Assembly: GCF_010093815.1 (NCBI RefSeq)
Contig: NW_022985549.1
Span: 1,823,494 to 1,887,493, forward strand
Source: Pseudovirgaria hyperparasitica
Taxonomy: Eukaryota; Ascomycota; Dothideomycetes; Acrospermales; Acrospermaceae
Direction: 5' to 3'
DNA length: 64,000 bases
A program made the position numbers and the translations under genes. The number at the start of each line of letters is the position of its first letter. Position 1 is the first letter of the stretch. The notes under the pieces were generated by a model, which saw nothing but the letters and a program-made list of their open reading frames with translations, had not been told where the DNA came from and did no database searches. This document shows, in pieces, positions 15,322 through 39,770 of the stretch.

Positions 15322-16451
15322 ATGTTCCCTCAAAGATCCTCATGCGACCGTTGTCGCCAGCAAAAGGTGCGATGCCTCAAGAGTTGGGAACCATCAACAA
15401 CCGGTAGTGGAGGCGGCGGCCATCTTACCCCGTGCGACCGATGTGCAAAGGTGGATGCACCATGTGTATACAGCTGTATGTCTTGTGTCTCCATTACACG
15501 AGGTCTATCCACAGTGCTAGACACACAGAACTAATTACTCCAATGGTAGTGAGGCAGAGAAACAAACGATCAAAAGGGGAAGACGTCCCATCCCCGAAAG
15601 CGAATACGCAGCTCAAGCAGGATCTCCCAACGGTGCTATCAATTCCGGATGTTGCTGGATACGATATCAACGACTTGATGATGCCATTGCCACCGCTCGA
15701 CATGGACATAGTCTGTATCGATGATGGCGACACGTACAGCTGGAATAACGGACCGGGCCTCACATACAACGGCGATGATGACAGCATGACCCAAGAGAGC
15801 TCAGGAACCGGGCCAACACTTTCTCAAGATGAAAGCAAAGATACTTTAACAGAGCAGCTGATGAAGTTAAGTCAGCGAGCCACGAGGGCCACACGAGAGT
15901 TGGAGTGCGGAGAAATTGTTTTGCCATTGACAGTAAATTCACCTGTGGTGAATGAAGCATTCGAGACCGCGAATGCCTTGGTGCGCATCATCAACAGTAT
16001 GCCGCTGACGGACAGCACGTATGAGTCCTCATTATTGTCCCGCGATAGCAGTCAACAACAGCTACCAACTTTTCTGGCTCTAGCCGCCTATCAGTACGTC
16101 CTCGGCCTCTTTCGCGCAATCTGTGGATCTATCAAATGTTCCTCAGGATCAATAGCCCAGGGGATTGAGCTGCAGCAACAGACATTGCACGGTGCTGGCT
16201 CGTGCTCCGCGCAATTCATCATGGTTTTGCAGCTTATCATGCATCTCCTCAATCGCATAGGTCGTAGTCTTCGAACAGGGAGCCGAAGGAACTCGGACCA
16301 ACATGAGCTTGGGGGTGGAGAAGTCGGTAGCCTACAAGGTGTTGTCGATTCTGCTCAAGTCATGCTTAGAAGTATGACTGATGAACATGTCAAGCTCGGT
16401 GGGGTGATTCAGGATCTTCAAGCTGGGATAGAAGAAGGAGTTCATATGTAG
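15322..16451 (+). CDS. Zn(II)2Cys6 transcription factor, probable cluster regulator
   Basis: Exons 15322-15475 and 15550-16451 give about 351 residues. The N-terminus carries the binuclear zinc cluster C-DRC-RQQKVRC...CDRCAKVDAPC with an unusually long Gly-rich loop (TTGSGGGG) between the third and fourth Cys. The 74-nt intron lies right after CVYS, the usual intron site in this family, and joins a basic linker (RQRNKRSKG). The C-terminal part is helical (LALAAYQYVLGLFRAICG), like the activation and dimerisation regions of AflR-type pathway regulators. It is short compared with general fungal regulators, as cluster regulators often are. It is the leftmost gene of the biosynthetic cluster and probably binds the CCGA/TCGG sites found in the cluster's intergenic regions (inference). 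Confidence 0.9.
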
Positions 16452-18336
16452 AATTAATGTAAAGTCGGAGAATATCTACAAATGTCTTGAAACCCCGAAG
16501 CCTCGTTGTGCAACAATGATCTGACTAAGGATGCAGTTGAAGAGCCGATTGCATAGAATCTTTGCTTTGATCTCATAAACTAAGGTCAACAAGGGCACGA
16601 GTATCACAGACTCGTTTCTTGACCAGCATAGCTTGCCTTGATGCGTGATGAAGACATGCATACAGCCGTATCTACGATACAGCCACTCAGAGGCAACTGT
16701 CCTACGTATCGCGAGCGATGCGGTTCGGAATTACTTAGACTCCTTCACAGGCTAGCTAACTGCCGATTCGTAATTGAAACACGTCTCTAAGAAGCCAAGT
16801 CTTCGAATGACCCCTTAATCAGATATATCACATTCGAACCTAGACTTGATAGGCGTTCCCAAGATTGTCTAATGTATTAGCCGATATCGGTTGAGATAGC
16901 TCTGAACTAGGCATCCACAAGCGGAGCCAAAACTTGCTTGTGACTCGACTACCCTGGCACATATGCTGAGTGAGGTTGAATCTGGTAAACATACGGATGG
17001 CACCAAGCCTATTGGAGTTACACTGTGGAGTATATGGACTCCCTGCATTTTCTCAAAACAGGGTCAGAAACAGGGTCAAGAATCAGCTGTCGATCTATGT
17101 TCGGTTAATCGACTCAGGGGTAGTTCTGGTCCTGCAAGCCAATATTGGCATGACTAAGTATCTCACGGCTTTGGCTTGTTCGTTCTTGGCAAGTCTTTCT
17201 ATAATATTCTAGACTAGCTTATAGGGTGCATGAACCAGGGTCCTGGATACCCGGCTCTGATATGGCTCAAGGAAATATCCCAGCTTTGATAAGACATCCT
17301 TGTCGATAAGCTTACAACTTGTCTGCAAGACATCCGACGTACTATGGTACTAGAAGGAGGTCCCACTGCGGGCCTACCCATAGTCCCTTGCGATGGATGC
17401 CGACGGCCATTGCCGCTCGTGGAGCTGCAAGGTAATCACTTAGCGCCCCTATCTCTCTATAGCAAGAATTTAGTATAGTATCAGCCGTCTTATATATTCA
17501 CTGTCCAATCACATGCTGGCTTGTTCAACGCCTTGTTTGTGCTTAGTCTTATGTATAGTGAACATCGATATTTATAACGCAGGACTCCGACAGTTGTAAT
17601 CAATGATTGTACAAATGTGTGTTTACGGTCCGTATTGTGTACAGACCAGACAATATCAAGTACTGCCTCGAGACGGGACTAGTGTCAAGTAATACAGCAG
17701 ATCTCTATTTAAAAATATACACGTTTCGGCGGCTACTCGCTAATCTCCACTAATCTATGATCACGAGCATGTGTCGTCTCGGTGCACTTGCCGGTGCTAC
17801 TCAAGTACTCGAGCTAAGAGTACAAAGGGTGATCTAATATATCTGGACACTTTTAAAACGGCTCAGGTTACAATATAAGTGATGCTGACATATACGACTT
17901 ACCGTTTAACGTTCATTCTCAATAAATGACTACATAAAATCGTTTGAAAAGCTTTCATTGTTGACCGTGATGGTCTTAGGTCCACTTCTCCGAGTCCTCT
18001 CTGCCTCTATTCGTGAATGTTCGGATTTCTTATTACACAAGGAATATTAACTAAATTGGCGAGGCCAATCTTCTGTCTGGGGTTCACATCAGAGAACTTT
18101 ACTTTCTAACGGGTCTACTAGAATGCCAAAGTCTGTCGACCTCAAAGTGAGGTAAAACATATATTCTAATGTTGCTAAGTTTCCCACAGACACTTGTATT
18201 CCTCACACATCGAAGAGAATTGTTTGCGCTAAGAACCATTCTATAAAACTAAGAGTTCAAGTCTACCACCTTCCTCTATAAGCTGATTTGGACGAGCAAG
18301 CATGAATATGCCTGAGAACTATGTTCTGAACCGTGT
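16452..18336. other. 1.9-kb gene-poor region inside the cluster
   Basis: No gene is supported. Frames are short and stops frequent. A short stretch at 17343-17430 (containing CDGCRR) recalls the start of a Zn2Cys6 motif but does not continue. The base composition is more AT-rich than the flanking genes. It could be decayed coding sequence, but I cannot show a family. Confidence 0.3.
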
Positions 18337-19508
18337 CTATGCGTCCACTAACGGAACCACCTGCCTCTTGGCACGTACATTCCCAACACGTAGATCGTTT
18401 ACGTACGTAGGAATACTCGCCAAACCTCCCGCCCTAATTTCCAAAGGATGATTCTTAATCCTGCCTTCGTTCAGCAACTTGTCTGCTAGGAGGAACAGAT
18501 TCAATCCAAAAGCTCGGTGCTCAGGGGTGCTAGGGCGTCCGTAAGTGCCCGGAATTTCAACTGGTGTTCCCATAATTGTAGGAGCCATCAACCAGTCGGC
18601 ACGGACATCTCGTCGCGTGTATTTGACGATAGGGCTAACAGCTTCGAGCGCGACATATCTGCCACCAGAAGAACCAATCGCCTCGTAGCACATCCGCATC
18701 GTCGATGCGTCGGTCACACAGTCGAAGACAGAGACAAGGCTGTTCGCGGTATACTCGCGGATGTCGGCGCCGCATGTAGACGAGCGGTAATCAAAGCATG
18801 CTGCGGCACCGAAGCTCTCGCATATGGCATTATTGGCAGGTGAACAGGTGACGATTGGTGTATATCCGGCTCTGTACATGTTCGAGTTAGTGAGATAACT
18901 CAGAAATACCACTTGCTTGTGCAACATATCATACTTGTACATATTGGAAAGGAGTAATCCACTTACATTTTGAGAAGCTGAGTGGCCATTGTTCCGGTAC
19001 CTGTTGCTCCTCCTGATACCAGCACGAATGAAGGTGTGTCTTCGGCGGATTTTGGACGTGGCAGTTCAAGGGCTAGCCCGGGTGCTTGAAAGAGAGCCAG
19101 TCCAGCAGTGGCAATGCCAAGACCCATTGAGCTTGCCTGTTCAAAGGATATGTTTTCGGGGACGTGGCAGCTTAAGTCCTCAGTCGCCAAGGCGTACTCG
19201 GCAAAAGCGCCCGCCGTCTTGTCTGAGGCGTTGAGGCCAAAAGTTACGGCGAGGATCCGGTCGCCTTTCTTGAACCTTGTAACACCTTCGCCGACTGAGG
19301 CTACGATACCAGCAAAGTCGCAGCCTCCTATTGCGCCAGGGGTATTCGAATAGTCTACGATCTTTGCGTCGTAGGGGCTCAGGGCGACTGAACGCACCTG
19401 ACACAGAATCATGCCCGGCTTTGGGGTGGGGATCTCGATATCGTCTGCGAGTCTGTAGCCGCCAGCCTCATCTCCGACGAGAGCTTTCATTGCTGTGCTA
19501 GGCTTCAT
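18337..19508 (-). CDS. LovC-type trans-acting enoyl reductase (MDR family)
   Basis: Two exons (19508-18967 and 18871-18337, intron 95 nt) give 358 residues, close to the 363 of LovC. The N-terminal GroES-like fold carries VRSVALSPYDAKIVDY and GCDFAGIVASVGEGVTRFKKGDR. The nucleotide site is FVLVSGGATGTGTMATQLLK, followed after splicing by IAGYTPIVTCSP. The structural and catalytic zinc ligands of alcohol dehydrogenases are missing, as expected for this group. Family members reduce the enoyl intermediate on partner PKSs that lack an active ER. The PKS at 28913 has no ER domain, so it is the natural partner. The gene is divergent from the GST gene across a 409-bp region holding cluster motifs. 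Confidence 0.92.
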
Positions 19509-19917
19509 TGTTGAGTTGAGTTGTGTGTTGGGGTTTATGCAAAGAGAATCTGATCGAATCGTCTAGAAATATCGAAAGAAGATGTTGCTGGCTTATGTGA
19601 CTATGTAATCCAAGATCTGAACAATGATCGCAACTAGGGACTGCTCACTATATCTACTCTGTGCGATCATGTGGGGCCATTTGGGCCATCATAGTCAGGA
19701 ATTCCGTTCGGAGCGCCGACCGGAGGTCCCACGTCGCCTCCGAAGACTGCTGAGCTGATACGGATTCCGGATAGCTTCCAGGGGTCAGTGGAGAATACTC
19801 TCCAACTCTAACTATCTGACGCCCCATCTGCAACTGATCTCACGACACAGTCACACTGACCATACTCCAACTTTCAGACTTAACCCATCAAAGGCTCGAA
19901 GACAAGTCTATTACACA
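19509..19917. promoter_or_regulatory. Divergent cluster promoter (trans-ER / GST)
   Basis: Contains TCGGAG at 19708-19713 and CTCCGA at 19738-19743, forming an inverted pair around CCGACCGGAGG. Similar sites occur in other cluster intergenic regions. A binding role for the local Zn2Cys6 protein is inferred. Confidence 0.45.
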
Positions 19918-20983
19918 ATGGCCTCGAATTTCTATCTTGAAGATACGCCGGCAGAGGTGAAGAATGCCAAGGTAAGTACTAGCGAGCTATAGTGTCCATT
20001 AGAATCTGTATCCGGAATTAACCAAAAGTGCTCAGGGGCTGCACCTAATTACTTCGAACACTCCTAATGGAAAGAAAGTGCAGATTATGCTTGAGGAGCT
20101 AAAGGAGTTGTATGGCACGGAGTGTTCGTAGATCTAACTCGTTTGTGTCTATGTACGAAGCCTTGACGGACCTAATAGACACTACGACAATAATCGACCT
20201 AAGTACCAACGAGCAGAAAAAGGACTGGTTCTTGAAACTTAACCCAAATGGTACGGGAGCGATATCTATACCTATGGATGATACTTATCTGCGACCGTAG
20301 GAAGGATCCCAGTTCTTATTGACAACACCCAAAATCCGCCTTTCCCAGTAATGGAGACTTCGGCAGAGCTGCTCTATCTCTTCAAGGAAGAAGACAAGAA
20401 GGCTGCGTTCGGCTACACCGATGATTATGGACGAAGCGAATGCCTGCAATGGCTTTTCTTCTGGCACGGCAGCGTATTGAAGTTTCTGCCGCCGATATGT
20501 CGTTTACACTAATAAAATTCTCAGGGTCAACCAATTCAAGGGCAGTTGGGCTGGTTCTCAAGAAATGCTAAGGACAATGAGGGTAAGTCATCAAAAAGTC
20601 ATTCCTAACTATGAAGCGTTTCTGACCGTCGCTGAACATAGTCGCTATCAATCGCTTCAAGAACGAAGTTCTTCGTATCTATGGTGTCCTTGAGCTCCAC
20701 CTTTCGGGTAAGTATACTGGCCAAGCTAAAGAATATCTTGCTGGTAAAGGCGCTGGCAAGTACTCTGTTGCAGACATCTCGACTTGGCGTAAGTGTTTGA
20801 TTCCTCAACAAGCAACGTAATTTGTATTGACACATGCAAGCTTGGTTAGATAGCTGGCACAAGATGGACCAGATCACTCAGGAGGACATGGACAATTTCC
20901 CACACTTGCAGAAGTGGATCGAACGTATCGGACAGCGGCCTGCAGTGAAACGAGGCACGGATCCTAAGACTTGGGCGATATGA
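19918..20983 (+). CDS. Glutathione S-transferase, Ure2p-like
   Basis: Seven exons (19918-19971, 20036-20123, 20179-20250, 20301-20473, 20525-20582, 20642-20788, 20841-20983) assemble into 244 residues. The whole path is supported by continuous family sequence: NTPNGKKVQIMLEELKELYG, STNEQKKDWFLKLNPNGRIP, METSAELLYLF (glutathione-binding segment), ECLQWLFFWHGSGQPIQGQ, then YGVLELHLSGKYTGQ and VADISTWPWLDSW in the helical C-terminal domain. Ure2-like GSTs occur in several fungal toxin clusters, where they conjugate glutathione to reactive intermediates or protect the producer. The gene is divergent from the trans-ER gene. Six introns in 1.1 kb is dense for this window. Confidence 0.92.
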
Positions 20984-21545: not shown

Positions 21546-22553
21546 ATGTCTTGTCCCGATTGCTTCCTTGGTGAGGTCTCTAAGGGCCAGCCAACTGGAA
21601 AGGAACTTGAAATACATGGCGTCCAAACCTACGTTACTGGGCCCGAAGCTGGTGTCAGTCCCAAGGGGATCATAGTCTACATTACCGATGCATTCGGCTA
21701 TGACTTTGTGAACAATCGAGTCTTATGTGACCAGTATGCTAAAAGGGGCTTTCTGGTCTACTGTCCAGACTTTATGAACGGTTTGTTTCACACCAAGACT
21801 TTTAGATTACATCCAACTTATAGATGCTAAGGCCGCTCCATGTCTCCTTCGATTATTGCTCCTATGCATACCATCTTAGAAAAGAAGTCATGGCTCTATA
21901 CTATCTTCGTCAAGCCATTCATACTTGTCAAGGTCCTCTACCACCTGATCCCCTGGTTTATGACGTGCAGCATCGCCAAGACGGAGGCCGGCGTAATCAA
22001 ATATTTCACGGCTCTTCGGACCTCGCCGCCTCCTTTCCAGACTAGAGACTTGAAGATTGGCGCTGCCGGATTTTGCTGGGGTGGAAAGCACACCGTCACC
22101 CTCGCACAAGACTATCCAGATCACCGCGTCACCCGACACTCATCCCAGAGCACCTCCTCGGCCCCTGAACCGCTTATCGACGCCGCCTTCTTAGTGCACC
22201 CAACCTTCATCAAGGTACCGGAGGACATTGACGCAATTAAGATTCCCATCTCCTGGTCCGTCGGCGAAGAGGACTTGCAGATGAAGACTGATGATATCAA
22301 GAAAATGAAAGCTATTCTCGAGAGCAAGCAAGACGCTGAGCACGAAGTCATACTTATTCCGGGTGCCAAGCATGGCTATGCAGTCCGCACCGATCCTGAG
22401 GATAAAGTTCAAATGGCAGCAGCGGAGCAGGCGGAGCAGCAGGCTGTGTCGTGGTTCTCGCGGCGCTTCACTCGTACACCTCGTACCGATGCTTCTCCCG
22501 TCGTACAGCGACCTGCCCAGGATCATTCAGCGAGCCTTTCTTCGGAATCTTGA
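21546..22553 (+). CDS. Dienelactone hydrolase family protein
   Basis: Alpha/beta-hydrolase of 318 residues in two exons (21546-21780, 21832-22553). The frame requires the acceptor after gctaag at 21831, giving the joint FMNGRSMSP, comparable to the FMNG-x-MP stretch of homologues. It starts MSCPDCFLG as usual in fungal DLH proteins. The nucleophile is the Cys of GFCWGGK; the acid lies in SVGEEDLQM and the His in GAKHGYAVR, so the Cys-Asp/Glu-His triad looks complete. A hydrophobic stretch around residues 95-125 (WLYTIFVKPFILVKVLYHLIPWFM) may associate with membranes. In the cluster it may open a lactone or act on an ester intermediate; the substrate is unknown. Confidence 0.88.
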
Positions 22554-23117: not shown

Positions 23118-23843
23118 TCAAGACTCGGGGACCGAACCACCTGCCACGCTCTCCATCGTGCTTATAAGCAAGTATCCTCCGACCAGCTGAGCCAACGCAG
23201 CAACACCCTCTTTACCCAGCAATGCAACAGCGGAATCAAACTGTTTGTCTTTGATATTACCAAAGCCTCTTGCAACGCTCAACGCTAGCTCGTAGACGCA
23301 TTCCTCTCTGTCCGATAGGCCCTTTGGAAGATGCCCTGCGCTGGCTCGTTCGACTTGGTCCTGGGTCAAGCCTAATGATATTCCAATTTTCTGGTGAGCG
23401 TACTCGACGTAGTCACTCTTGGTGACAGAAACAGTCGCCAACGTGGTCAATTCGCGCTCCTTGGGGGTGAGGTGCGGCAGAGTGTAATAGGATTTTGAGT
23501 AGCTGAGGAACGGCTTGAAGGTTGATGGAGTGTAACAAAGAACTCCGAAAGGGCCGAGGAAGTTTCCCTGAGCGTCTTTGAATGAGAAACTCTCTCCTTG
23601 GAGCTCTTTGACGTCACGCTCTGTTTGCTCGAAAGCCTCTTTCTGTTCCTGGCTCCCAAAGACGGAGGGGAAACGGGGAGCTTTGGCAACCATTCTGGAT
23701 TCGTTGCGAATTGAAAATTCGTGTGAGGAAATAGCTGACACGGAAGACTGGTATCTAGAAAAATAATGAGACAATTTGAATGCAGATTTTGGGACCCAAC
23801 GTGTAACCGGGCGAGGGACAAGCGTGGCGACGTATTTAATCAT
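23118..23843 (-). CDS. Carboxymuconolactone decarboxylase / AhpD-like protein
   Basis: Up to 241 residues from ATG 23843; a shorter start at M51 (23693, MVAKAPRFPSVF) gives 191 residues and is equally likely. The longer form has an Arg/Ser-rich N-terminus that could be a mitochondrial signal. A pyrimidine-rich TTTTTCTAG just before codon 31 could instead be an intron end in the 5' UTR. The fold signature is ELTTLATVSVTKSDYVEYAH: it keeps the Glu and His of the CMD family but lacks the CxxC pair of AhpD peroxidases, so peroxidase activity is unlikely. Relatives occur in polyketide clusters, where some act as decarboxylases or cyclases. Divergent from the adjacent hydrolase gene. Confidence 0.8.
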   Translation of the reverse strand: MIKYVATLVPRPVTRWVPKSAFKLSHYFSRYQSSVSAISSHEFSIRNESRMVAKAPRFPSVFGSQEQKEAFEQTERDVKELQGESFSFKDAQGNFLGPFGVLCYTPSTFKPFLSYSKSYYTLPHLTPKERELTTLATVSVTKSDYVEYAHQKIGISLGLTQDQVERASAGHLPKGLSDREECVYELALSVARGFGNIKDKQFDSAVALLGKEGVAALAQLVGGYLLISTMESVAGGSVPES

Positions 23844-24100: not shown

Positions 24101-25102
24101 ATGGCACCTACTCGCGAAGACATTGAGTTCAAGACCCTTGCCGGCATCACCTTGCGTGGATGGCTGTACCCAGCCGAAAAACGTGGACCAGGAATCATCC
24201 TTTCTGCAGGGGTATGTAAATCACCACGTCTGAATTTTGAAGAAGACTCCAAAGCCGACTAATTTCGATACAGTTCAATATGCCTAAGGATGTAGTCGTA
24301 CCAGATATTGCCGAATGGTATCACAAGCGAGGTTTCACTGCACTCATCTTTGACACATATGGCATCGGTGCGAGTGATGGTCTACCCAGACATGACGTGA
24401 GTTATTCTTTGCAACACGAAGCCAGCCAATTAGATGTCAACTGACATGCAATCGTGGTGGTAGAGTGATATGCTGAGGCGCATTGACGACTTCACCGACT
24501 CAGTGACGTGGCTCTCCCAGCATCCCCTTATAGATCCGGAGAAAATCGCAGTTTGGGGTCTCTGTTTTGACGGCAACATTATGCTTGCCACCGCGGCATA
24601 CGACCGTCGGATTGCTGCCGTAGTAACGGTTGCCCCGATGATCGATGTTACTGGTGACCCCGAACGCCGCGAAGCCATTTTCGAACTTGGACTGGCAGAC
24701 CGCGCTGCCCAACTTGCTGGGGAGGATCCCATGTACCTACCTCTGGTTGATGAAGACGGCATGACGCCACTTGGTCAATTCTTAGGCAATTTCTTCACAA
24801 CAATGGATAGCATGAAAATGCCCATTGAGAACCGTGTCACGGTCCATACCTATATGCGATGCCTCAACTGGAACATTCTACACCTACTGCCAAAGATCAG
24901 CCCGACCCCAGTGATCATGGTGACGCCTGAGCTCGACCAAGTATTCCCGGCAAGCAGGCAGAAGGAAGCATTTGACTTGTTGAATGAGCCGAAGGAACAT
25001 TGTCTTCTGGTTGGAAAGCATCACTTTGACTGGATGTTTGGAGATATGGACAATGCGTTCAGTCCGCAATATGAGTTCTTGAAGAAGCATCTGAGGCTTT
25101 AG
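24101..25102 (+). CDS. Alpha/beta hydrolase of the polyketide-transferase/thiohydrolase type (copy 1)
   Basis: Three exons (24101-24211, 24274-24396, 24464-25102) give 290 residues. The start MAPTREDIEFKTLAGITLRGWLYP and the block RGFTALIFDTYGIGASDG are typical of the fungal group that includes the fumagillin polyketide transferase Af380 and related cluster thiohydrolases. The nucleophile-elbow position reads VWGLCFDG (residue 112 is Cys). The acid candidate is in TPELDQVF and the His in GKHHFDW. Members act on PKS-bound or released polyketide acyl chains; the exact reaction here is unknown. The product is related to the second hydrolase at 27236-28309 over its whole length, including the same first intron position after the oxyanion strand. 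Confidence 0.87.
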
Positions 25103-26900: not shown

Positions 26901-27235
26901 TAGTGACCGGGCAATGTATAGGTTATCATAACAGACAGGGTCATTCGGAAACATAGGTATCCATGCACTTCTCCAGTACCTCTCAATAACCCAAGAGGAT
27001 TGCTTCCTCAGTCTTACAAACTTCGCATTCAACAGCATGGTTACGTTTCTCTTCAAACTTTTATGACAGGAAGATCCCATCAGGATATATAGTATGGGGA
27101 TTGCATTATAAATGATTGTGTATATACGTCAAAGGAATGACACTGTGGAAAGTATATGCGCATGCTTACATACATTCCAATACCCAGCCTGGGTCGACAG
27201 ATGTGCATGAGAATTTGAGAGAAGCATTTCGTACC
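26901..27235. other. Convergent intergenic region
   Basis: Between the stops of the monooxygenase and the second hydrolase. Nothing recognised. Confidence 0.35.
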
Positions 27236-28309
27236 TTAGAAGCCTAGAACATCCTTAAGGAACGCTAGCTGTCCGGTCAGAAGCTCATCAATGTCAACGC
27301 TCAAAAAGTTTGCGTGACCCCTATCTTTGACAATTTGGAATCTTTTCTGTGGTGATTGCAAACTGTCGTATATGCTCTTCTGATACTCAGGAGGCACAAT
27401 CTCATCATTCTCAGGTGTCAAAATCATGACCGGGGTGGGGCTGACAGATGCAAATAGGTGTATGGGCTTCCACTTCGCATGGCGATAGAAGCTCTGAATT
27501 GTGAGACTGTCTCTGAAGGTCGAGGCAGCCTTCTTGGCTCCGACGATCCAGTTGGGAAGGTGAGCCTGTTGCTCAGGCGTCATTTTGGCTAGGTAATTGA
27601 AGAGCAGGAAGTGCTCGCCCTTTTCATTGAGAAGGGGCATATACGCCGGCGGTTCGCCTCGAAGCTGGTTTGCTCGGTCCTCAACTGCTCGGGCAACGAG
27701 GTCCTCCTGATCCTTAGGATCCAGGTACCACTCAGGCATGAGGCCTTGCGCTATGACAGCTTTTATGCGCCTATCGAATGCTGCAGCCTCAAGTGCTATT
27801 CCAGAACTGTAGAAGAATCCCCATACGGCTATGCGGTTTGGGTCAACCCAGCCGTCGTTCTGCAAAAACTGTTTTCTATTGTTTAGTGTATTGTTTATAG
27901 AGCAACCGAAGTCGCATTGATAGGTAGATACATACCGTGACGGCGTCAGAGTTGTCTTCGGCCATCTTTTGTGGGTCCAAATCGGTTCGGGGCATGCCAT
28001 CGCTCGCGCCAATAGAACGAGCATCGTAAACAAGAGCTGTCAGCCCATGACGTCCGAACCAAGCCGCTATATTAGCCACGAAGATTTCTCTTGGGCACAT
28101 AAACTATTGTATAGAATATGACTAGGTAAGCAAAAGTACCAACTAATATTCTTGATAGATTATGAGGCGTTTGTCCATCAAGGAAAACTTACAGCACCGT
28201 TAACAATCACTGCAGGACCGCCCTTGGGGCCCACGAACAGCCAACCACGCAAAGTCAAGCCATCGAAGGTCTTGAACTCGACATCTCTGCGTTCTTGCTC
28301 TGCAGCCAT
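27236..28309 (-). CDS. Alpha/beta hydrolase of the polyketide-transferase/thiohydrolase type (copy 2)
   Basis: Three exons (28309-28193, 28103-27936, 27868-27236) give 305 residues. The start is MAAEQERRDVEFKTFDGLTLRGW, followed after splicing by FMCPREIF and HGLTALVYDARSIGASDG. The nucleophile-elbow position reads VWGFFYSSG, so the usual Ser appears to be Phe (residue 114); a nearby Ser (116) could take over, or the enzyme may not be a hydrolase. The acid candidate is in TPENDEIVPP and the His in DRGHANF. It shares intron positions and overall sequence with copy 1, so the two probably arose by an old duplication. It is divergent from the PKS gene and shares its promoter region. Confidence 0.86.
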
Positions 28310-28912
28310 GATGATATAGGATTCAGAAAAGCTTAGTCTCGTGTCGAGTACTTCAGTAGAAGAGCAATGTGCGCCACCCTGCCAGGAGAAAACCTAGTCG
28401 TTAGGCTTCGAGAACTCAGTCGAGATTGCCGATCGAGCTTTCTAAGAAAGACAAAGAACTTCGACGTTAGATTAATGTTATTATTGTTCTGAGTCGGTAG
28501 AGGAACAGTCCTCCGAAAGGATCGGAGTATCGGAGCTAGGTCGAGTCTCCAGGGGCACAGGAGACCGGTGGGTCGCTTACTTTTCCGGTCCGGTCCGGTC
28601 CGGCGCTATCTGGACGACCGTACCGGTTCCTGCCCGACGTGATACTACAGCTCCGAAAGCGTTCGCTGTGTCTGAGGCTCGGATAGCGCATTATCTCACC
28701 TCTTCAAAACTGAATAAATATGTCCAACAACGACCTGCACGGTATCTCTGACGCGGCTTGCATTCCCACATCACTACTTCGTATGCCCAGCCACCGTCAC
28801 GTCCAAAACACACAAAGCGTGAAGCCTCCATGATATTGAGCTGCTATACTCTCAGATCGATTCAGCCAACCACTTTTCATAGTTCAATTGATCCTGCAGC
28901 ACAATATTAATC
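28310..28912. promoter_or_regulatory. Divergent cluster promoter (hydrolase 2 / PKS)
   Basis: The richest motif region of the cluster: CTCCGA at 28511-28516, TCGGAG at 28522-28527 and 28530-28535, CTCCGA at 28651-28656, GAGTCGGTAG near 28491-28500, and a 5-bp-period run of CCGGT (28585-28603). A co-regulating role for hydrolase 2 and the PKS is inferred. Confidence 0.5.
28585..28603. repeat. CCGGT pentanucleotide tandem run
   Basis: Three CCGGT units followed by CCGG, with another ACCGG nearby on each side. CGG half-sites at fixed spacing are typical Zn2Cys6 targets. Confidence 0.6.
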
Positions 28913-31900
28913 ATGGGCAGCTATCCTCAGTCTAACGATGGCCCACTTCGAGAGCCCATTGCAATCGTGGGAAGCTCTTGTCGCTTCCCAGGTGGTGCTA
29001 CTTCCCCATCAAAGCTATGGGATCTCCTCTCAGATCCCCGAGATCTTGTGCAAGAGATTCCCGCCAGTCGCTTTGATCCGAAGGTTTTCTATCATGAAAA
29101 CAGTCAGCACCATGGAGTATGTCCCGTTGGCTATCTCAAGAAACATATCTGAGTTCATTGGCTAACTGGTGTAACAACAGAGTATGAACACAAAATATGC
29201 TTATATTTTACAAGATGAACCGCGACTTTTCGACCGCGATTTCTTTAACATCAGCCCAAAGGAGGCTGAAGCGATGGATCCACAGCAGCGATGTCTTCTG
29301 GAGACTGTCTACGAGGGAGTGGAGTCGGCAGGTTACTCCATCCCTCAGCTCCAAGGGTCTTCTACTGGTGTCTTCGTCGGAGCAACATGCTTCGACTACC
29401 AGTCCATTGCAATGCGTGGCCTCGATAGCCTGCCGCAGTACTACGCCACTGGCGGGTCCATGGCGATCCTAGCCAACCGTCTATCGTACTTTTTTGACTG
29501 GAGAGGTCCGTCACTTGCCTGCGATACTGCTTGTTCGTCATCACTCGTGGCGCTGCACCAGGCAGTGCTTTCTCTTCGAAGCGGGGAAATCAACATGGCT
29601 GTTGCAGCGGGGGCAAACCTCATCCTCGGGCCAGAACTTTTTATCGCTTATTCGAATGTATGTTGTGCCATTAATGAGCATTCTTGGGCAGTCTCAGCTA
29701 ACATATGACATGATAGTTAAATATGTTGTCTCCCAATGGTCGATCCTACATGTGGGATTCATCTGCCGACGGATACGTACGAGGAGAGGGGTTCGCCTCT
29801 GTCATTCTCAAGACCCTTAGCCAAGCTGTTGCTGATGGTGACCACATTGAGTGTATTATCCGTGAAACCGGTGTAAACTCTGATGGTCGAACTCCAGGTT
29901 TGTAAGCCACGCTGTTCATAATGACGGTTGAATTAACCGTCATATAGGTATCACAATGCCAAGTGCAGAGGCGCAGTCCCAACTTATTCGAGACACATAT
30001 AAGAGATGTGGGCTGGATCCGGTGCGTAATCGTCCTCATTATTTTGAGGCTCACGGCACTGGTACTCCAGCAGGCGATCGTAAGTATACGATCATCACAA
30101 CAAAGGGATCTCGATGCTAAATTCCACCAGCTATTGAGGCACGTGCCATACATGATACTTTTTTCCCAGGACATCCAGGCCAGAATGACGGTCACCTCTT
30201 TGTAGGCTCATTGAAGACCATCATCGGACATACAGAGGGCACTGCTGGCCTCGCTGGAGTACTCAAAGCATCGTTGGCTGTTCAACACGGCCAGATCCCG
30301 GGCAACCTTCATTTCAAAGAGCTGAACCCGAAGATCCAGCCATTTTATAAGCATCTAAGGGTTCCAACAGGATTGACTTCGTGGCCCACTCTGCCCAAAG
30401 GGGAGCCACGCCGTGTAAGTGTCAACAGTGTAAGTCTTGACCTGCATCCAAATCGCAATTGAATCCTAATCTGAGGCAGTTCGGCTTTGGCGGAACCAAC
30501 GCCCACGCTATCATTGAGAGCTGGGATGGAGCATACGACCGCTATGCATCCTTGTCGAATCCGGGCGGACTTGTTGTCCTGTCTGCCAACTCGGCTCAAG
30601 CACTTGCAGCTAAAGCTACGACGCTGGCCGAATACCTACGGAAACATCCTGCTACAGATCTTGGGCGACTAGCCCGGACCCTATTCCAGAGAGGAGACTT
30701 CCTCTTCCGAGCCTCATTTGCCGCTGTATCTGCTGAGCAGCTTGCCGGAAAGCTTGAATCGCGCGCAGAGGCGCTCAAGAAGACTGCACGGATTCCAGCC
30801 ATTCCAAAGTCCCTACCGCCTCGTATCCTTGGTGTCTTTACAGGTCAAGGTGCCCAGTGGGCCACCATGGGCAAAGAACTCTACGAAGCATCATCTGTGT
30901 TCAGGAAGACGTTGGACCAGCTACAGAACAGTCTCGATACACTCCCTGAGAGCGATCGACCAAACTGGAAGCTAATCGACGAACTCTCTGCTCCAAGGGA
31001 AACATCCCGCGTTGGTGTAGCTGCCATCTCGCAGCCGATCTGCACAGCCCTTCAAGTCGCTCTAGTAGACGTTATCCGCGCAGCTGGAGTTGACTTTGCG
31101 GCCGTTGTCGGACACTCAAGTGGAGAAATAGCTGCATCGTATTGTGCAGGCTATCTTGACGCTCGGGATGCTATACGCGTTGCATATTACAGAGGTTTCC
31201 ATTCTAATCTAGCCCAATGCGATGGCAAGCGTGGCAAGATGATGGCCGTGGGCATGGGCTTGGACGCCGCGTTAGCATTCTGTGCTGAATTTGGCACAAA
31301 CCTCAAGGTAGCAGCCAATAACTCCACCACTAGCTGTACGCTGGCTGGTGATGCCAACTTGATTGACGAGGCCAAGGCTCAATTGGACGAGGACAAAGTC
31401 TTCGCCCGTGTCTTGGCAGTGGACACAGCATATCACTCTCATCACATGTTGCCATGCGCGGGTCCTTACCTTGAGTCGTTACGACAATGTGGAGTCAAAA
31501 CTCTGAAAGGCCCCAGAAAGTGCGAGTGGTATTCTAGTGTTTGGGGATCAAATGGCCGTAGTCGTTCTTTCAACGACGAGAAGGGCATGGAACTGCTCGA
31601 AGGCCAGTACTGGGTCGATAACTTGACCAACACGGTCCTGTTCTCCCAGGCAGTGAACCGAGCTGTGTCTGAAGAATCCTCAGTGTTGGACTTGGCACTA
31701 GAGGTAGGCCCGCATCCAGCTCTCAAGGGGCCAAGTTCCGAAGTGATCAAGTCTTTGACCGGCCTGAACCTTCCTTACAGCGGTGTCCTCAAACGCGGAG
31801 AAAGTGCTGTTGAAGCTTTTACCGATAGCTTAGGACTTATATGGTCCTCTTTCCCCTCGTCGCGTCCTCTCATCACTTTTGATGGCATATTACGGGCCTT

Positions 31901-34900
31901 GCCGCTGGCTAGTCCTAAGAAACCCAGCATTCTCAAGGGCCTACCAACCTATCCTTGGGATCATGATACCCTTAATTGGCGGGAGTCGAGAGCATCGCGT
32001 CTCTTCCGTGGTGGTCAGCCGCCCCACGAGCTGCTCGGTCGACCAACGATACTTGGTGAACAAGCTAGGCGAGAGGTCTATTGGCGCCAGGTTTTCAAAC
32101 TGAACGAGCTCCCATGGGTACGAGGCCATACCATACAAGGCGAAGTCCTCTTCCCAGCAACTGGATACTTGACAATGGCGTACGAGGCAGCAGTGCGTCT
32201 CGTCGATGACCAGGAGTCAATCCGTCTTGTTGAGCTCCATGATATCGAGATCGTGCGAACCATGGGCATGCAGGAAGACTCGTCAGGCCTGGAGGTTCTA
32301 TTCACTGTCCGCGTGACGGGTCAGACCGACAGCTGCATTACTGCCGAAGTGGCCTGTTACAGCGGCGACATTACCACGGCCAAGTTGGACGGCCCTGTGA
32401 GCTCGCTCACCGCACATTTCAGTGGTGGTGTGCGGCTTTTGCTGGGTCCAGCCCAGAGCGGCGACCTTCCCACCCGGAAGAAGCCTCTACTCCCAATGAA
32501 CACTTTGGATATGGACCAATTCTACGGTTATCTGTCGAAAGTGGGCTACAACTATTCCGACTCTTTCAAAGCGCACTCGGTTGATCGTCACCTCAACCAT
32601 GCCGTGGTATCTGTCTCGACACCTGCTGAATCTGCCTCAACATGTCCCTCAATGCACCCTGCAGTTCTCGACACCGCTATCCAAGGCCTCCTGGCCGCTT
32701 TTTCATACCCAGAAGACGGAAGGCTTGGGACAGTGTATCTCCCTACGGGCATTGATAGTGTCCGCATCAAAGTGGCATCTGACTCTCCCGACGTCTTGAT
32801 GGCAGACAGCGCTTTGACTTCCTCAGGGGAGAAGGGGCTCACGGGTGAAGTAGACCTTTTCAACGCAAGCGATTCAACTGTCCAAGTCCAAATGCGAGGA
32901 GTGAGCTGGACCGCCCTAAATCAAGGCCGGGAGCGCTGGCTATATGCAAGCGAGGAATGGGTACGAGACGCATCTCACGGCATCGAGCCTACCCTGAAGA
33001 CCAAGTTCTCTCCCGAAGATGAAGTGTTGCGGAAGCTCCTGGTACGAGTAGCGCATTTCTACTTACGCGCCCTTCGCAGCCAGATAAAGCCTTCAGAACT
33101 GATCGTTATGGGCAAACATCGTCGTCACATGATGAGATGGGTCCGTGAGCACCTGTTTCCCCAGATCGAGGCAGGCAAGGTGCCCGATATTGAGCCTGAG
33201 TGGGCGAATGATACGCTTGAAGAAGTGCAGCAATGGAGCGCTCCCTATATTGAAGCAGGAAACAACGACATGCTCATCCTGCACGCTGTAGGCAAAAACT
33301 TGCCTGCTATTGCTCGCGGAACTATGCCTGCCCTCCAGGTTATGCTTAAGGACGGCATGCTCGACCGTTTGTATGTGGAGGGAGTCGGTTTTGCCGACGG
33401 TAACCTTGATCTCGGGCCGTTGGTCAAGCAAGTTGCGCATCGATATCCCCGGATGAAGGTCCTCGAGGTCGGAGCTGGAACGGGTGGTACCACTCGCAGT
33501 GTACTTGAGTCTGTCGGCGACCATTATGGATCATACACGTACACTGACATCTCAGCCGGCTTCTTTGAGCCGGCAAAGGCAAAGTTTAGCGAGCACACAA
33601 GCAAATTGACGTTCAAGATGCTGAACATTGAGAAAGATCCGATAGAGCAAGGGTTCGTTGAAGGCTCATATGACATGGTCGTAGCCTCCAACGCGCTGCA
33701 TGCGACTCGATGCTTGAAAGATACGCTCAGCCACTGTCGCCAGCTGCTTCGACCTGGCGGATACTTGGTATTGCTAGAGATCACGACCAACCATCTGCCA
33801 ATTCAACTCATCATGGGCACGCTTCCTGGATGGTTCCTGGGCGCTGACGAAGGCCGCGTCTGGGTGCCTACGCTTAGTCTTGAGGAATGGGACAAGATAC
33901 TCAAAGAGACTGGATTCTCAGGTGTTGACACAAGCTCAACACCGTCCTTCTGTTCCGTCATCATGTCTCGGGCAACTACCGAGACCTTCGAAGCCATTCG
34001 AGAGCCACTATTAACTGCACCGCGCCCAGCAGCCCAGCCACTGGGTCCTGTTCTTATTGTCAGCAATGCGGCGTCAGAACTTGCATCCGGGTCACAAGCC
34101 CTCCTCACTTCCATCGAGGGTGTTACTCAATGCGATATTACAGGCCTCGAGGACATCAAGTGCCCCGTCGGAGCAGTAGTGTTGTGCCTCTCTGACCTGG
34201 ATAGTCCAGTCTTCGAGGAAATGACTGAAGCGAGATTCGAAGCTATGCAGACAGTCTTCCGCAATGCCAGCGTCGTTTTGTGGGTGACGTCAGGGGCAAC
34301 CTCGGGCAAGAACCCGCTGGCCAATGTGACAGTAGGATTGGGACGTACACTGCTGGCCGAACGTAGTGACTTGCAGCTTCAGTTCCTCGACGTTGATGAT
34401 CCAACATCTCTGGAGCCGTCTCTACTGGCGAAGCTTCTGCTCAGACTCACCGGAACAGATCAAGCTGATCTAAGCGAGATGCTCTGGACCCAAGAGCCTC
34501 TTCTTGCACTTAAAGATGGCGCGTTCTATATTCCCAGGGTTTTGCCTCTACAAGTTACCAGTCGTCAGTCTACAACGGAGCCATCCGTCGAAGTGGCAAC
34601 ACAAGATTCGGTAGAGAACGTCGTCACCGAAACCGGCCTTGATGAGCATAAAAGCACTTTCGCCGATAACAAGACCTACATCCTTTTTGGCATGACAGGA
34701 GATCTTGGAATCTCTATTGCTCGATGGATGGTGGAGAACGGTGCTCGAAACGTCGTGCTGACCAGCCGCCATCCCGATGTTCCGGAGGGAGTGTTCGAAT
34801 TTATGTCACAAAAGGGAGCCATACTGCGTGCCATATCAGCAGATGTTACGGACAAAGAAGGATTGAACAAGGTATACGCAGAGATCAAGTCGACTTTGCC

Positions 34901-36863
34901 ACCCATTGGAGGTATCATCAATGGCGCCATGGTACTCCGAGACCGCCCCTTTGTCGACACTACCTGGGACGACTTTGAGGCAGTACTTGCGCCAAAGGTT
35001 GCAGGGACTCGCAACCTTGATGAGCTCTTTGGTGAATCTGAGGCCCTGGACTTCTTCATTGTGCTTTCGTCTGCGACATCCATTGTGGGCAACATTGGAC
35101 AGTCAGCTTATAGTGCAGCAAACCATTATATGACAAGTCTCGTCAAACGTCGGCAGGGTCGTGGACTGGTTGGGTCAGTCGTAGTCATTGGCTTCCTGAC
35201 GGGCCTGGGCTACATCTTCCGTTCAGACAAGAAGCATCGCGCTGCCATTGAGAAGTCTCTCCTTCCACGGCTGGATCGACAAGCCGAGACAGATCTGCAC
35301 GATATGCTCATCAAGGCTATCGAGTGCGGACGACCAGAATCCAACCTACCATCCGAGCTCATCACTGGTATAAGGAAGAAGTTCACAGAAGCGTGGCACG
35401 AAGATGTGCGCCTATCAGGCTACCTCCTACAAGAAGGTGACAAGGAGGAAGGCGCCAGTCAGGAGCAAGCTGATGGGAATGTCAAAGTTGATATTCAGCT
35501 GGCTGCAACCAAGGATCCAAAGGAAGGTCTCGCAATCCTGATCAAGTGCTTCTCGCAAGCTCTGGGTAACATGCTCCAGCTCGATCCGGCCCAGATCAAC
35601 GCCGATATGCCTGTGGCTGAACATGGTGTTGACTCGCTCGTATCCGTTCGTATACGTGAGTGGTTCCTGAAAGAGCTCGGTGTTGACGTGCCGGTATTGA
35701 AACTCATGTCGACCAACCACACCATGTCGCGCGTATGCGAGGATGCCTTCGCAGGATGGCGAAAGCTTCGCTCAGGGTCTCAGGCAGAGTCCCAGACCGC
35801 TACCAAGACCCATGACGATCCAGAAATGGATTGGAAGAAGGAAGTAGCCGGGCTCATCGACGGCATTCCTGCCCTGGTCGCAGCTGGCGTTGACTCCGCC
35901 GACGTGCCTCGCACTAGCGCACGCCGCGTCGTCTTGACTGGATGCACAGGTTTCTTGGGTACGCACATACTTCGTAACCTCGTCGCAGACCCCAATACCG
36001 CAGAGGTGCACTGTCTCTGCCTTCGCTCGCGTCCTCTGCGCGTCAAGGACGCAAGGATCCACGAGTACAAGGGCGACCTAGTCAAACCGTTCCTGGGGCT
36101 GTCCGCGGCCGACTTCAAGCGCCTCAGCCAGACGGCCGACCTAATCATCCACGTCGGAGCCGACGTCGCGCATCTGAAATCGTACGAAATGATGCGAGCT
36201 GCCAATGTCATCTCGACGCAGACGCTGCTCGCGATGGCGACGCCACGCCACGTGCCCGTACACTTTGTGTCTTCGTCGTCCGTGGCAATGTTGCAGAAGG
36301 ATACAGCAGAGCTGTGGGAGGTGCCGCCGTCCAGCTTCTGGCCACCGTCGGATGCAGAGTCGCTAATGAAGAATGCGATTGGTTATGCAGCCAGCAAGTG
36401 GATGGGCGAGATCCTGCTGGAGCGTGCGGAGGGTGTTCCGGGCGTAGTCCATCGCTTCCCCAACATCATGGGGCCGGACGCACCCGAAGAGATCCCGCTA
36501 GTGGCCCTAGACCGCTACTGCATGAAGCTGCGGGCCGTCCCTGCGCTAGATCCCAAGCAGTGGGTCGGAGAGCTTGACGTCATCGAGGTTACTGACGTGG
36601 TGCCGGAACTCATGGCCACGGCGTATGCCCATGATCCCAGCAAGTCATTCGCAATTCACAACTACTGCAGCGAGAATAGATACTTGCTCTCGGATCTCGT
36701 GAGTATGTACAAGCAGAAGCTGGGTGGCACCGTTGAAGTCCTGCCGACACCTGAGTGGATGCGGAGGGCTAAGGACTTGGGCATGCCCAAGGGAGTGGAG
36801 GCTACTTGGACTGGGCACAATGAAGTGTTCATATCGCCTGTATTGCACAAAGGACAAAAATGA
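28913..36863 (+). CDS. Highly reducing PKS without ER, with terminal reductase domain (KS-AT-DH-MT-KR-ACP-R)
   Basis: Six exons (28913-29116, 29181-29657, 29717-29897, 29948-30079, 30131-30429, 30480-36863) give about 2558 residues. [17 protein letters not shown] and [13 protein letters not shown] (about 545-860): FTGQGAQW and GHSSGE. DH (about 950-1270): [14 protein letters not shown] and [25 protein letters not shown] near 1425. A structural pseudo-KR segment leads directly into the KR (GMTGDLG near 1835; catalytic SAYSAAN near 1975). No ER sequence lies between. ACP: GVDSL near 2149. [12 protein letters not shown] near 2252 and YAASKWMGE near 2400, a thioester-reductase domain that would release an aldehyde or alcohol. 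All catalytic residues are intact. This layout is known for betaenone-type PKSs that work with a LovC-like partner; such a partner is encoded at 18337-19508. Confidence 0.95.
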
Positions 36864-37766
36864 TTAGACATAGAGTATAGAGGCGACTGTAAATTGTATA
36901 GAGGCGACTATAAATTATATAAAGGCGACTGTAAATTGTATAGATGACAGTAGAATATTAGAACGCTCTCTCCTCATTGCACTTCATTCCAACGTTGGAT
37001 TCTGTTAATAGGATTTACAAAATACGATAGAAAACAGAGATGTAATAATACTGTATAATACAGCTCTTTTCTTATCGACATGCTCGTTCATGGAAATCAT
37101 CTCTCTTTAGTATTCGCTAACAACCTACAGTTTCATAAAGAGTAGATGAAACTTTTTCCTTCTACATATTTAGAGATACAAAAACTTCATAACATAATAT
37201 ATTATGGGTTCTAAGACGATCGAAGACCTATAATATATAGAATATAGCATTACATTTCATGGTGATGCACGTTTGTATAGAAAGTAATCCAGATTGAGCT
37301 CCGGTGTTTATATATATATACATCATTTTATCCTAAGAGAGAAGTTATCCCAAAAGGCCTGAAGTCGCAGGTCGTCATGGCAACTAGAGCTATGAACGTG
37401 CAAATGCGGGGCACATGGATTCTAGCCAGACGAGTTCAAAAACCCTCACCCGACCTCAATCTCAATCGCATCACCTCGTCTGTCCACCAACCCATCGTCG
37501 AAGCACCTCCGAAAAATCAATAAAGCTTTCATATTTCAATTTCAATGCTAATGCTACAAAGTGAACTACCTTGCGAGGTCTACTTGAGTATATTAAGAAA
37601 AGCTAGCCATGAGCGGCACCCATTTTCCACCCCTCTAACACGCATTCTACGCTCTCCTCTACCCCAAACCCAATGCTAAAATCATCGTACACATGAAATG
37701 AACTTCCCGCCTCGATCAGTCAACAGCACCGCCCTTCTCGCCCCTATGTTGGGGGAAATAGCCATC
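36864..37766. other. AT-rich convergent intergenic region with a short minisatellite
   Basis: Between the stops of the PKS and the transporter. Very AT-rich around 37000-37350. The only structure seen is the 21-bp repeat just behind the PKS stop. Confidence 0.4.
36876..36947. repeat. 21-bp minisatellite, about 3.4 copies
   Basis: Units at 36876-36896, 36897-36917 and 36918-36938 (consensus tatagaggcgactgtaaattg) with a partial fourth copy. It begins 13 bp after the PKS stop codon, within its presumed 3' UTR. Confidence 0.9.
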
Positions 37767-39770
37767 TCAAGCCTTGCTAGCAGCCTGCTTCTTTGCATTG
37801 ACATTATTCCACCTGGTGAGCATGCTGACAGGCACACAGATACCACAGCACGCGATTGTGATTGCAAAGGCAACCTTGATACCCCATGCATACGCGCGCA
37901 AGACGCCGTCGAGGTCGGCGCCGGTAAAGACGCGGTGCAGATCCGTGGCGCCGGTGGCGGTGACGAGGGTTGCATCGAGATTGGGTGCGGTGCTGGCGAG
38001 CTTTGCGACGAGTTGGTTGACGAAGCCGCACTGGGCGGCTGAGAGGAGGATTGTACCACCCATGGATCGACACCCTGGGAGAAGAAATTAGTAAAAGAGG
38101 CAGAAAGGGGGTAAGTAGGAGTGATGGCATGCTCGATCTGGTCGAAGGAGACTTACATATGATGATTGCCGTGGTGGGGGCTATATCAGCGGGTGCGGAG
38201 AAGGCCTGCGAGATGATGACGGGAACTTGCAGCGCGAGACCGTATCCAAAGCCGCCTAGGATCTGGTAGCCAACCCATTTGCCTGTCGATGTTCCAATGT
38301 CCATGGTGAAGAATAGACCGGCGGCGATGGTGACGATTACGGAGCTAACTGGCAAGTAAGGAGCTGCGACACCTGTCTTTGTGATGATCACACCCGAGCC
38401 GTATGTGGCGATGCCGAACAGGACGATGAGAGGGATGTTGCGGACACCCGAGCCAATCGGACTGGCGTTGTCGATACTTTGGAAATAAATGGGCAGGTAG
38501 TAGAGCGTGACGAAATAAGCGCCGGCAAAGAAGAAACCCCAAAGACCGTTGACCCAGACGTGTCGTTGACGCATCAGGCGAGGTGTTAGCATGGCGCGTT
38601 CGCCCTGCCAGATCTCTACTGCTGTGAGGACTCCAACGATGGCAACGAAACCGACGATCAATCCGATAACAAGACTAGAGCTCCACGGATGGGTCTGACC
38701 TCCATACTGAAGGGCTAGTAGCAAGGTGAGGGATGCACCCATGGTGAGCGTTGCGCCCAAGAAGTCCATTTGCAAAAGCTTCTCCTTTAATGTAGCTTGG
38801 ACCACCTTGGCAGCTGCAGGAGTCTTGAAGGTGACCAAAATGACAGCAGCGGCCAGACCACCGATTGGAAGATTGATATAGAAGCACCTAAAGTTGGTAT
38901 GTCAGACGAGGCCATTGCAGGAGCGGAAACTATGGAATAGTGCAACAAGGAAAAAGTAGTAAGTAAAACGTTGACTACTCACCATCTCCACGACGCTCCA
39001 TCAGTGAGTCCTCCACCAATGAGTGGTCCACACACAGCAGCAACACCATACGAAACTCCAATGACCGAGGTGTAGGTAGCTCGTTTCGTGGGCTCAGCCG
39101 CAAACGCCGAAATCGTGTAAACTCCAGGCGCAATACCCGAAGCACCAAGACCGGAAATAGCACGTCCAACGATCAGAGTCATTGAGTTCTGAGCGACTCC
39201 GCTGATCAAGCTTCCGAGTTCGAAGATGAAGATTGCGACCAGGAAGCTGGTTTTCAGTGGGAAGAATTTGTACACCTTGCCCCATAGTGACTGGAACGCG
39301 CCAAGCGTCAAGAAGTAAGCAGAACCGTACCACGAGATATCATCAAGCTTGTGGAATTGGTCCGTGATCTTTGGAATTGCGGTCGCGACGATGGTCTGCA
39401 TCGAGAGTGTTAGTTTATTAGCTTGATATACCACAGCGAAGACGACTCTGGAAGGGCGATATGAAGCAGAACTCACCTGGTCCAGAGAGATCAGTGTGAT
39501 ACTGAGTATGAGAGCAAGCATAATGAACAAGACCTCGATACCCTTTGGGTATGTCATAGGTTTCGGCGGCTCAGCGACAGGTTTCTCTTCGGTAGTAGCA
39601 CCATCAGCTTCAGGGGCATCTGATCTGGGTACACCATTGTCCGTCGAGGAGGCCGAAGAGGACATTTCGTTCGGCTTTTCCTTCTCAGGATCGACCTGGT
39701 GTGTATTGTCTCCCATATCTGCGAGCGTCCTGTCCTCTGGCAAGCGAGGCGGTGGTGTTGAAGGGGACAT
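37767..39770 (-). CDS. MFS exporter, 14-TMS drug:H+ antiporter (DHA2) type
   Basis: Four exons (39770-39477, 39395-38983, 38887-38157, 38074-37767) give about 581 residues. About 85 hydrophilic N-terminal residues precede the first membrane helix (IEVLFIMLALILSITLISLDQ). The splice joints restore the family motifs LDQTIVATAIPKI, WRWCFYINLPIGG and SMGGTILLSAAQ. Motif C-like GVAAVCGPLIGGGLTDGASWRW and the conserved SAYFLTLGAFQSLWG are present. Proteins of this type export fungal toxins or polyketides and often protect the producer. It is the right-hand gene of the cluster; its upstream region (39771-40110) carries the cluster motif. The start ATG 39770 was chosen over a longer open frame because homologues start with a similar polar tail. 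Confidence 0.92.

What the first reader, a model, noticed from the sequence alone, without database searches (positions are those of the whole stretch)
15322..39770. Biosynthetic gene cluster built on an ER-less PKS-R with a trans enoyl reductase
Nine enzymes or accessory proteins and a transporter lie together with a Zn2Cys6 regulator: trans-ER, GST, DLH-family protein, CMD-like protein, two related alpha/beta hydrolases, FAD monooxygenase, PKS (KS-AT-DH-MT-KR-ACP-R) and MFS exporter. The PKS-R plus LovC-type pair is known from betaenone-type pathways. I do not recall a described cluster with this full accessory set (two Af380-like hydrolases plus DLH, CMD and GST, no P450). The product would be a C-methylated reduced polyketide released as an aldehyde or alcohol, then oxygenated.
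Basis: partly seen in the sequence, partly recalled or inferred. Interest (0 to 1): 0.8.

Follow-up and report, generated by a model that had tools for sequence, protein, structure and literature searches.

The report
Reductase-ended cousin of gregatin cluster
A fungus carries a complete gene set for an unknown small molecule; it is a reductase-ended relative of the gregatin/fujikurin pathways, and in several fungi the set pairs a chain-handling enzyme with a sister copy that has lost its catalytic residue and whose job is unknown.

Summary
The ten genes are present at the stated coordinates and form a real fungal polyketide cluster (PKS identical to Pseudovirgaria hyperparasitica) between non-biosynthetic genes. 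Betaenone is not shown to be the closest comparison. The PKS is sister to an R-less lineage named "Polyketide synthase 19", and both "Af380-like" hydrolases are GrgF-family proteins (52% and 39% identity; GrgF fuses the chains of gregatin). Two things were missed. (1) The hydrolases are not equivalent: HYD1 keeps the GrgF cysteine (GLCFDG), HYD2 has Phe there (GFFYSS). The 24 Phe-type rows among 80 form one clade, support 100/99 without the elbow columns. HYD1- or HYD2-types share a contig with 21 of 37 close PKS rows (window included) and with 0 of 68 others examined. (2) This PKS subclade lacks about 270 residues at the ER position that its sisters keep. Most likely the cluster makes a C-methylated, possibly chain-fused polyketide released by reduction and oxidised by the FAD monooxygenase. 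Product and HYD2 function are unproven. New variant of a known kind.

The parts
15322..16451 (+). Zn2Cys6 regulator, join(15322..15475,15550..16451)
   Evidence: PF00172 E=6.7e-05; start and junction set by hand on the sequence
18337..19508 (-). trans-enoyl reductase (LovC type), 358 aa, 2 exons
   Evidence: best PDB match LovC 3b6z E=2.1e-66; 72.9% identical over 273 residues to the reductase half of an Aureobasidium gene model fused to a HYD1-type hydrolase, P0155
19918..20983 (+). glutathione S-transferase, Ure2p-like, 7-exon model
   Evidence: PF14497; PDB 4f0b E=6.3e-37 and PcUre2p entries
21546..22553 (+). dienelactone-hydrolase family protein with Cys nucleophile elbow GFCWGG, 318 aa
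   Evidence: PF01738 E=2.6e-23; motif; only distant PDB relatives
23118..23693 (-). CMD/AhpD-fold protein without the AhpD redox cysteines, 191 aa
   Evidence: PF02627; predicted fold matches CMD/AhpD entries, TM 0.70-0.76 in the first seven rows; 0 of 19 aligned sequences, the window's included, have Cys at either AhpD position
24101..25102 (+). HYD1: GrgF-family hydrolase, Cys112-Asp236-His265, 290 aa
   Evidence: GrgF 6lzh E=1.5e-105, 51.8% over 284 residues
25623..26900 (+). FAD-dependent monooxygenase, single exon, 425 aa
   Evidence: PF01494 E=8.4e-29; distant flavin monooxygenases in PDB
27236..28309 (-). HYD2: GrgF-family paralogue with Phe114 in place of the nucleophile; Asp250 and His280 kept; 305 aa (P0121)
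28913..36863 (+). PKS: KS-AT-DH-MT-(psiKR)-KR-ACP-R, 2558 aa, 6 exons, no ER
37767..39770 (-). MFS exporter (TRI12-like), 3 exons
   Evidence: PF07690, PF06609; membership in the pathway rests on position only

Best explanation
A biosynthetic cluster of the gregatin/fujikurin kind in which the PKS carries a C-terminal reductase. Steps, with their standing: (a) the PKS with the trans-ER builds a C-methylated, partly reduced chain [inferred from domains and the LovC/GrgB precedent]. (b) HYD1 takes the acyl chain from the ACP onto Cys112 and transfers it, most likely to a second short chain as GrgF does (Claisen fusion), otherwise to another acceptor or to water [inferred from 52% identity to GrgF and the kept Cys/Asp/His]. 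(c) HYD2, with Phe at the nucleophile position, should not form an acyl-enzyme; it acts either as a non-catalytic partner of HYD1 or as an Asp-His acid/base catalyst for cyclisation [loss of the nucleophile shown, role inferred]. (d) The R domain releases the product as aldehyde or alcohol [inferred from intact motifs]. (e) The FAD monooxygenase oxidises it [inferred]; DLH, CMD-like protein and GST act late or protect against a reactive carbonyl product [guess].
Against: No product, expression or enzyme data. The same family holds a thioesterase (DcsB) and, by name, fumagillin-type acyl transferases, so HYD1 need not fuse chains. GrgF reads GLCFGG where HYD1 reads GLCFDG, and HYD1 lies outside GrgF's clade. 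An R domain could make a separate acyl-transfer step unnecessary. CysD rows are not one supported clade. No HYD1- or HYD2-type link was found for 16 of the 37 close PKS rows (capped lists). Linkage of FMO, DLH and GST in other species was not tested. GrgA and the fujikurin PKS themselves were not compared.
Confidence: 0.5

Rival explanations
1. Betaenone-like single-chain pathway: the PKS-R with trans-ER makes one chain, the R domain releases it as aldehyde/alcohol, and the hydrolases only edit stalled chains or act late.
For: Intact R domain and LovC-type ER; an R-bearing Colletotrichum PKS shares its contig with a Ser-type hydrolase instead (P0045/P0212), so GrgF-type enzymes are not obligatory beside a PKS-R.
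Against: HYD1- and HYD2-types were found on contigs of this PKS-R clade only (21 of 37 against 0 of 68 rows) and keep separate, uniform elbows, which is more than an editing role needs.
Confidence: 0.3
2. Epoxidation route: the FAD monooxygenase makes epoxides and the two hydrolase-fold proteins open or cyclise them (as recalled for aurovertin-type pathways).
For: One FAD_binding_3 monooxygenase and no P450; HYD2, with Asp and His but no Ser/Cys nucleophile, could act as acid/base catalyst.
Against: Both hydrolases match GrgF and DcsB, acyl-processing enzymes. The FMO's best PDB matches are mostly ring hydroxylases by name, but they are distant, so this is weak.
Confidence: 0.12
3. HYD2 is a decaying duplicate without function.
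For: Nucleophile lost.
Against: The HYD2 clade has 24 full-length rows, all with Phe at the elbow (18 read GFFYSS, 6 are close variants), with Asp and His kept. Of the 19 other HYD2-type rows in that alignment 18 are 66-84% identical to the window's HYD2 and one, P0193, 47%. It shares contigs with the PKS.
Confidence: 0.05

Closest known systems
Gregatin cluster (GrgA PKS, GrgB trans-ER, GrgF chain-fusing hydrolase)
   Same: HR-PKS with trans-ER and a Cys-nucleophile GrgF-family hydrolase (HYD1 51.8% identical to GrgF). GrgF-type hydrolases share contigs with 7 R-less relatives of this PKS, so GrgA is presumably of that lineage; GrgA itself was not in hand.
   Different: Here the PKS ends in R and lacks the ER region; a second, nucleophile-less GrgF paralogue is present, plus DLH, CMD-like protein and GST.
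Fujikurin (PKS19) cluster of Fusarium fujikuroi and fujikurin-like clusters
   Same: PKS, ER, hydrolase, regulator, transporter (PMC5468452 passages); a hydrolase named after FFUJ_12241 falls in the CysG clade with GrgF (P0185). That the R-less 'Polyketide synthase 19' rows include the fujikurin type is inferred from names.
   Different: R-less rows keep 308-342 residues at the ER position (measured rows); their linked hydrolases are of the CysG type (7 rows)
Betaenone PKS-R (Bet1 with trans-ER Bet3; recalled)
   Same: HR-PKS ending in R with a trans-ER
   Different: As recalled, betaenone genes include a P450 and an SDR and no GrgF-type pair. Not compared by sequence.
DcsB (thioesterase, PDB 7d78)
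   Different: Ser elbow GMSFGG; 30% identity

Membership tests
HR-PKS with C-terminal reductase (PKS-R) | KS-AT-DH-MT-KR-ACP followed by an NAD_binding_4 domain with Rossmann motif and YxxxK | tested here: met
HR-PKS with C-terminal reductase (PKS-R) | product released as aldehyde or alcohol | not testable with these tools
   needs expression
LovC-type trans-enoyl reductase | MDR protein closest to LovC, not to ordinary alcohol dehydrogenases | tested here: met
   LovC E=2.1e-66 and a second 'Enoyl reductase' sequence 1.1e-65, next match 1.5e-19
GrgF-type chain-fusing hydrolase (HYD1) | GrgF-family sequence with Cys-Asp-His | tested here: met
GrgF-type chain-fusing hydrolase (HYD1) | place inside the CysG clade that holds GrgF (elbow GLC[FW]GG in most rows) | tested here: not met
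   GLCFDG; outside the CysG clade (support 99; 100/99), in a neighbouring group
GrgF-type chain-fusing hydrolase (HYD1) | fuses two polyketide chains | not testable with these tools
   needs assay
GrgF family, catalytic member (HYD2) | nucleophile at the elbow | tested here: not met
   Phe114 at the turn between strand 103-113 and helix 115-126 of the model
AhpD / carboxymuconolactone decarboxylase (CMD-like protein) | CMD/AhpD fold | tested here: met
   17 of 19 aligned members match PF02627
AhpD / carboxymuconolactone decarboxylase (CMD-like protein) | AhpD redox cysteines CxxCxxxH (motif recalled) | tested here: not met
   0 of 19 aligned sequences have either Cys
Betaenone-type cluster | PKS closest to Bet1; P450 and SDR tailoring genes (recalled) | tested here: inconclusive
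   no Bet1 sequence available; no P450 or separate SDR among the ten genes
Gregatin/fujikurin-type cluster | PKS, trans-ER, GrgF-family hydrolase, regulator, transporter together | tested here: met
   composition from PMC5468452 passages
Gregatin/fujikurin-type cluster | PKS without R domain (inferred from the R-less rows linked to GrgF-type hydrolases) | tested here: not met

The most novel reading that the evidence does not exclude
A two-protein chain-fusing device: an active GrgF-type enzyme (HYD1, Cys) works with an obligate nucleophile-less paralogue (HYD2, Phe), as a heterodimer or as two successive steps, to join two polyketide chains made by one PKS, and the fused chain is then released by reduction as an aldehyde. 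That would be a new release-and-fusion logic for fungal iterative PKSs and a conserved pseudoenzyme partner in secondary metabolism.
Probability: 0.25. Interest if true: 0.78.

Novelty: new variant of a known kind. Interest (0 to 1): 0.55.

Why it matters
Fusion of two polyketide chains by a hydrolase-fold enzyme is rare (a passage of PMC12304814, says 'only very few known' PKSs join two chains head to head and names GrgF). This cluster family ties that enzyme class to a reductase-ended PKS and to a paralogue that has lost its nucleophile yet is kept in fungi of several classes. It gives a ready genetic test of what a hydrolase-fold protein without a nucleophile does in biosynthesis, a natural case of a PKS that has shed its ER region, and a target for finding the product in several species.

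Tried and rejected
AflR-type regulation: the recalled AflR site TCGN5CGA occurs 0 times in the 11 intergenic stretches scanned. TCGGAG is the top 6-mer in five cluster intergenic regions (8 against 1.27 expected, P=5e-5), but among 1352 six-mers this is about 0.07 after correction, so no claim is made.

Betaenone as nearest relative: not adopted; no Bet1 sequence was available, and the PKS tree and the hydrolases point to the PKS19/gregatin side.

AhpD-type peroxidase for the CMD-like protein: rejected, both redox cysteines are missing in 19 of 19 aligned sequences. CMD as a fixed core gene: not supported; it shares a contig length with the PKS in 4 of 37 close PKS rows, the window's own included. 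Its search gave 20 proteins, itself included, and the Lophiostoma relative P0258 has another contig length (217572) than the Lophiostoma PKS (32613).

Horizontal transfer: the C-terminal part of the PKS is 76-79% identical between the window and Xylaria venustula, Clonostachys solani and Penicillium angulare, of other classes. This is suggestive, but no housekeeping baseline was computed.

That the missing PKS region is an inactive ER is inferred from its position between pseudo-KR and KR and from recalled HR-PKS architecture; no search matched it to an ER.

Literature: nine counted searches were answered. One search (at least 4 of PKS, trans-ER, GST, DLH, CMD) gave 0 papers; one search gave one, on ascochitine; of 84 papers and 25 I saw ten listings each and none describes this arrangement. 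The library is open-access only. The gregatin paper (JACS 2020) was not read; I saw passages of PMC8403587, PMC8902786, PMC8948627, PMC5468452 and PMC12304814.

Not tested, because the three protein searches went to PKS, the hydrolase pair and CMD: FMO, DLH, GST, regulator and MFS relatives in other genomes. Viral, phage, plasmid and prokaryotic collections were not searched.

Rows dropped: one search used the 78 of 120 hydrolase rows of 255-345 aa plus HYD1, GrgF and DcsB (81); the same without DcsB (80). One search used 40 of 120 PKS rows. One search used 105 of 120 PKS rows, 101 of 120 hydrolase rows and 15 of 20 CMD rows; the lists were capped at the best 120 and only one contig length is printed per cluster, so links are lower bounds, and equal length stands in for the same contig. 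The window's HYD1 was entered by hand there. Bathelium's HYD2 (P0131) has another contig length and tag series than its PKS and HYD1. The R-motif test missed rows that carry PF07993 (for example P0008, P0031). The elbow of one fragment, P0231, could not be read.
Full report
What is there. The window lies on contig C1 of a 35-Mb fungal genome; its PKS is identical to a protein of Pseudovirgaria hyperparasitica, a dothideomycete of the order Acrospermales. Ten gene models fill 15322-39770: regulator, trans-ER, GST, DLH-family protein, CMD-like protein, HYD1, FAD monooxygenase, HYD2, PKS and MFS transporter, with Pfam support for each class. G+C is 0.45-0.50 over 14-30 kb.

The PKS. Motifs of KS, AT, DH, MT, KR, ACP and R are intact. 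The stretch between pseudo-KR and KR, where an ER would sit, leaves 47 residues between my two anchor motifs here. It is 34-116 residues in the 16 measured of the 20 closest rows, 314-338 in 12 of the 13 measured of the next 17 (the exception, P0023, has 61), and 308-342 in the measured R-less rows. So this subclade has lost about 270 residues at the ER position; that they are a dead ER is inferred from position. In a quick tree of 40 chosen rows built without the R and ER-region columns, the 32 R-bearing rows are one side of a branch (SH-aLRT 100) against 8 R-less rows, and the subclade of 18 rows around the window's PKS is also supported at 100. Its named rows include Dothideomycetes (Pseudovirgaria), Sordariomycetes (Xylaria, Clonostachys), Eurotiomycetes (Penicillium) and Leotiomycetes (Leptodophora).

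Linkage. The protein search prints the length of the longest contig of each cluster. Taking equal length as a sign of the same contig, HYD1- or HYD2-types share a contig with 21 of the 37 closest PKS rows (20 of 36 without the window's own), both types with 8 (7 without), among them contigs of only 22, 33, 33 and 38 kb. For 16 of the 37 no such link was seen. None of the 68 other PKS rows examined shares one with either type, whereas 7 share one with a GrgF-type (CysG) hydrolase and 1 with a Ser-type. Locus tags agree: in Alternaria dauci CMD, HYD2 and PKS are ACET3X_002057, 002060 and 002061; in Bathelium CMD and HYD1 are M1821_006710 and 006711 (its HYD2, M1822_004741, bears another tag series and contig length); in Talaromyces atroroseus PKS and HYD2 are UA08_02969 and 02971; in Plenodomus PKS and CMD are J1614_008546 and 008554. 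The Alternaria numbers fit the window's order CMD-HYD1-FMO-HYD2-PKS, though the two genes between were not seen. In Aureobasidium one gene model fuses the trans-ER with a HYD1-type hydrolase (P0155), which places them side by side there.

Accessory genes. The CMD-like protein has the AhpD/CMD fold but lacks both AhpD cysteines in 19 of 19 aligned sequences; a Glu-Arg-Glu-Leu run and an Ala-His pair are invariant instead. It shares a contig length with the PKS in 4 of 37 rows, the window's included, so it looks optional. The DLH-family protein has the Cys elbow GFCWGG. The GST is Ure2p-like. The FMO has the usual FAD motifs and only distant solved relatives; in its own genome the next match is 27% identical.

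How it likely works. I think that the PKS and trans-ER make a C-methylated chain, HYD1 moves it by way of Cys112, most likely onto a second chain as GrgF does, HYD2 assists without covalent catalysis, the R domain releases the product by reduction, and the FMO oxidises it. Shown: the architecture, the intact motifs, the loss of the nucleophile and its conservation, and the linkage of PKS, HYD1 and HYD2. Inferred: every chemical step. The main rival is a plain betaenone-like reductive release in which the hydrolases are secondary.

Novelty. Each protein class is known, and the core is that described for fujikurin/gregatin clusters (PMC5468452 passages). New here, as far as the searches go, is an R-ended PKS without the ER region joined to a recurrent pair of Cys-bearing and nucleophile-less GrgF paralogues. 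I therefore call it a new variant of a known kind, of moderate interest, with one clean question to test: what HYD2 does.

Noticed in passing
own genome G000:C12:832996-833751 and G000:C7:695449-696189 (L009, L010): GrgF-superfamily hydrolases with Ser elbows (GISLSA, GMSLGG) lie within 2 kb of other ketosynthase hits, so further PKS-hydrolase pairs seem to exist in this genome.
   Followed up: partly
own genome G000:C27:16546-16959 (L011): A CMD-like paralogue (34% identical) about 7 kb from a ketosynthase hit at C27:8753; unlike the window's protein it has a cysteine at the first AhpD position before the conserved His.
   Followed up: partly
window 19708-19743, 28511-28656, 24002, 25507: TCGGAG/CTCCGA recurs in four of five cluster intergenic regions; suggestive of a regulator site but not significant after correction.
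   Followed up: partly
Verticillium dahliae P0167 and Fusarium sp. P0189: Two hydrolases have the HYD1 elbow GLCFDG yet branch apart from the HYD1 clade; their clusters were not examined.
   Followed up: no
Monosporascus P0193: Deep sister of the other HYD2-type rows with elbow GFFWSG, so loss of the nucleophile predates the main HYD2 clade as sampled.
   Followed up: no
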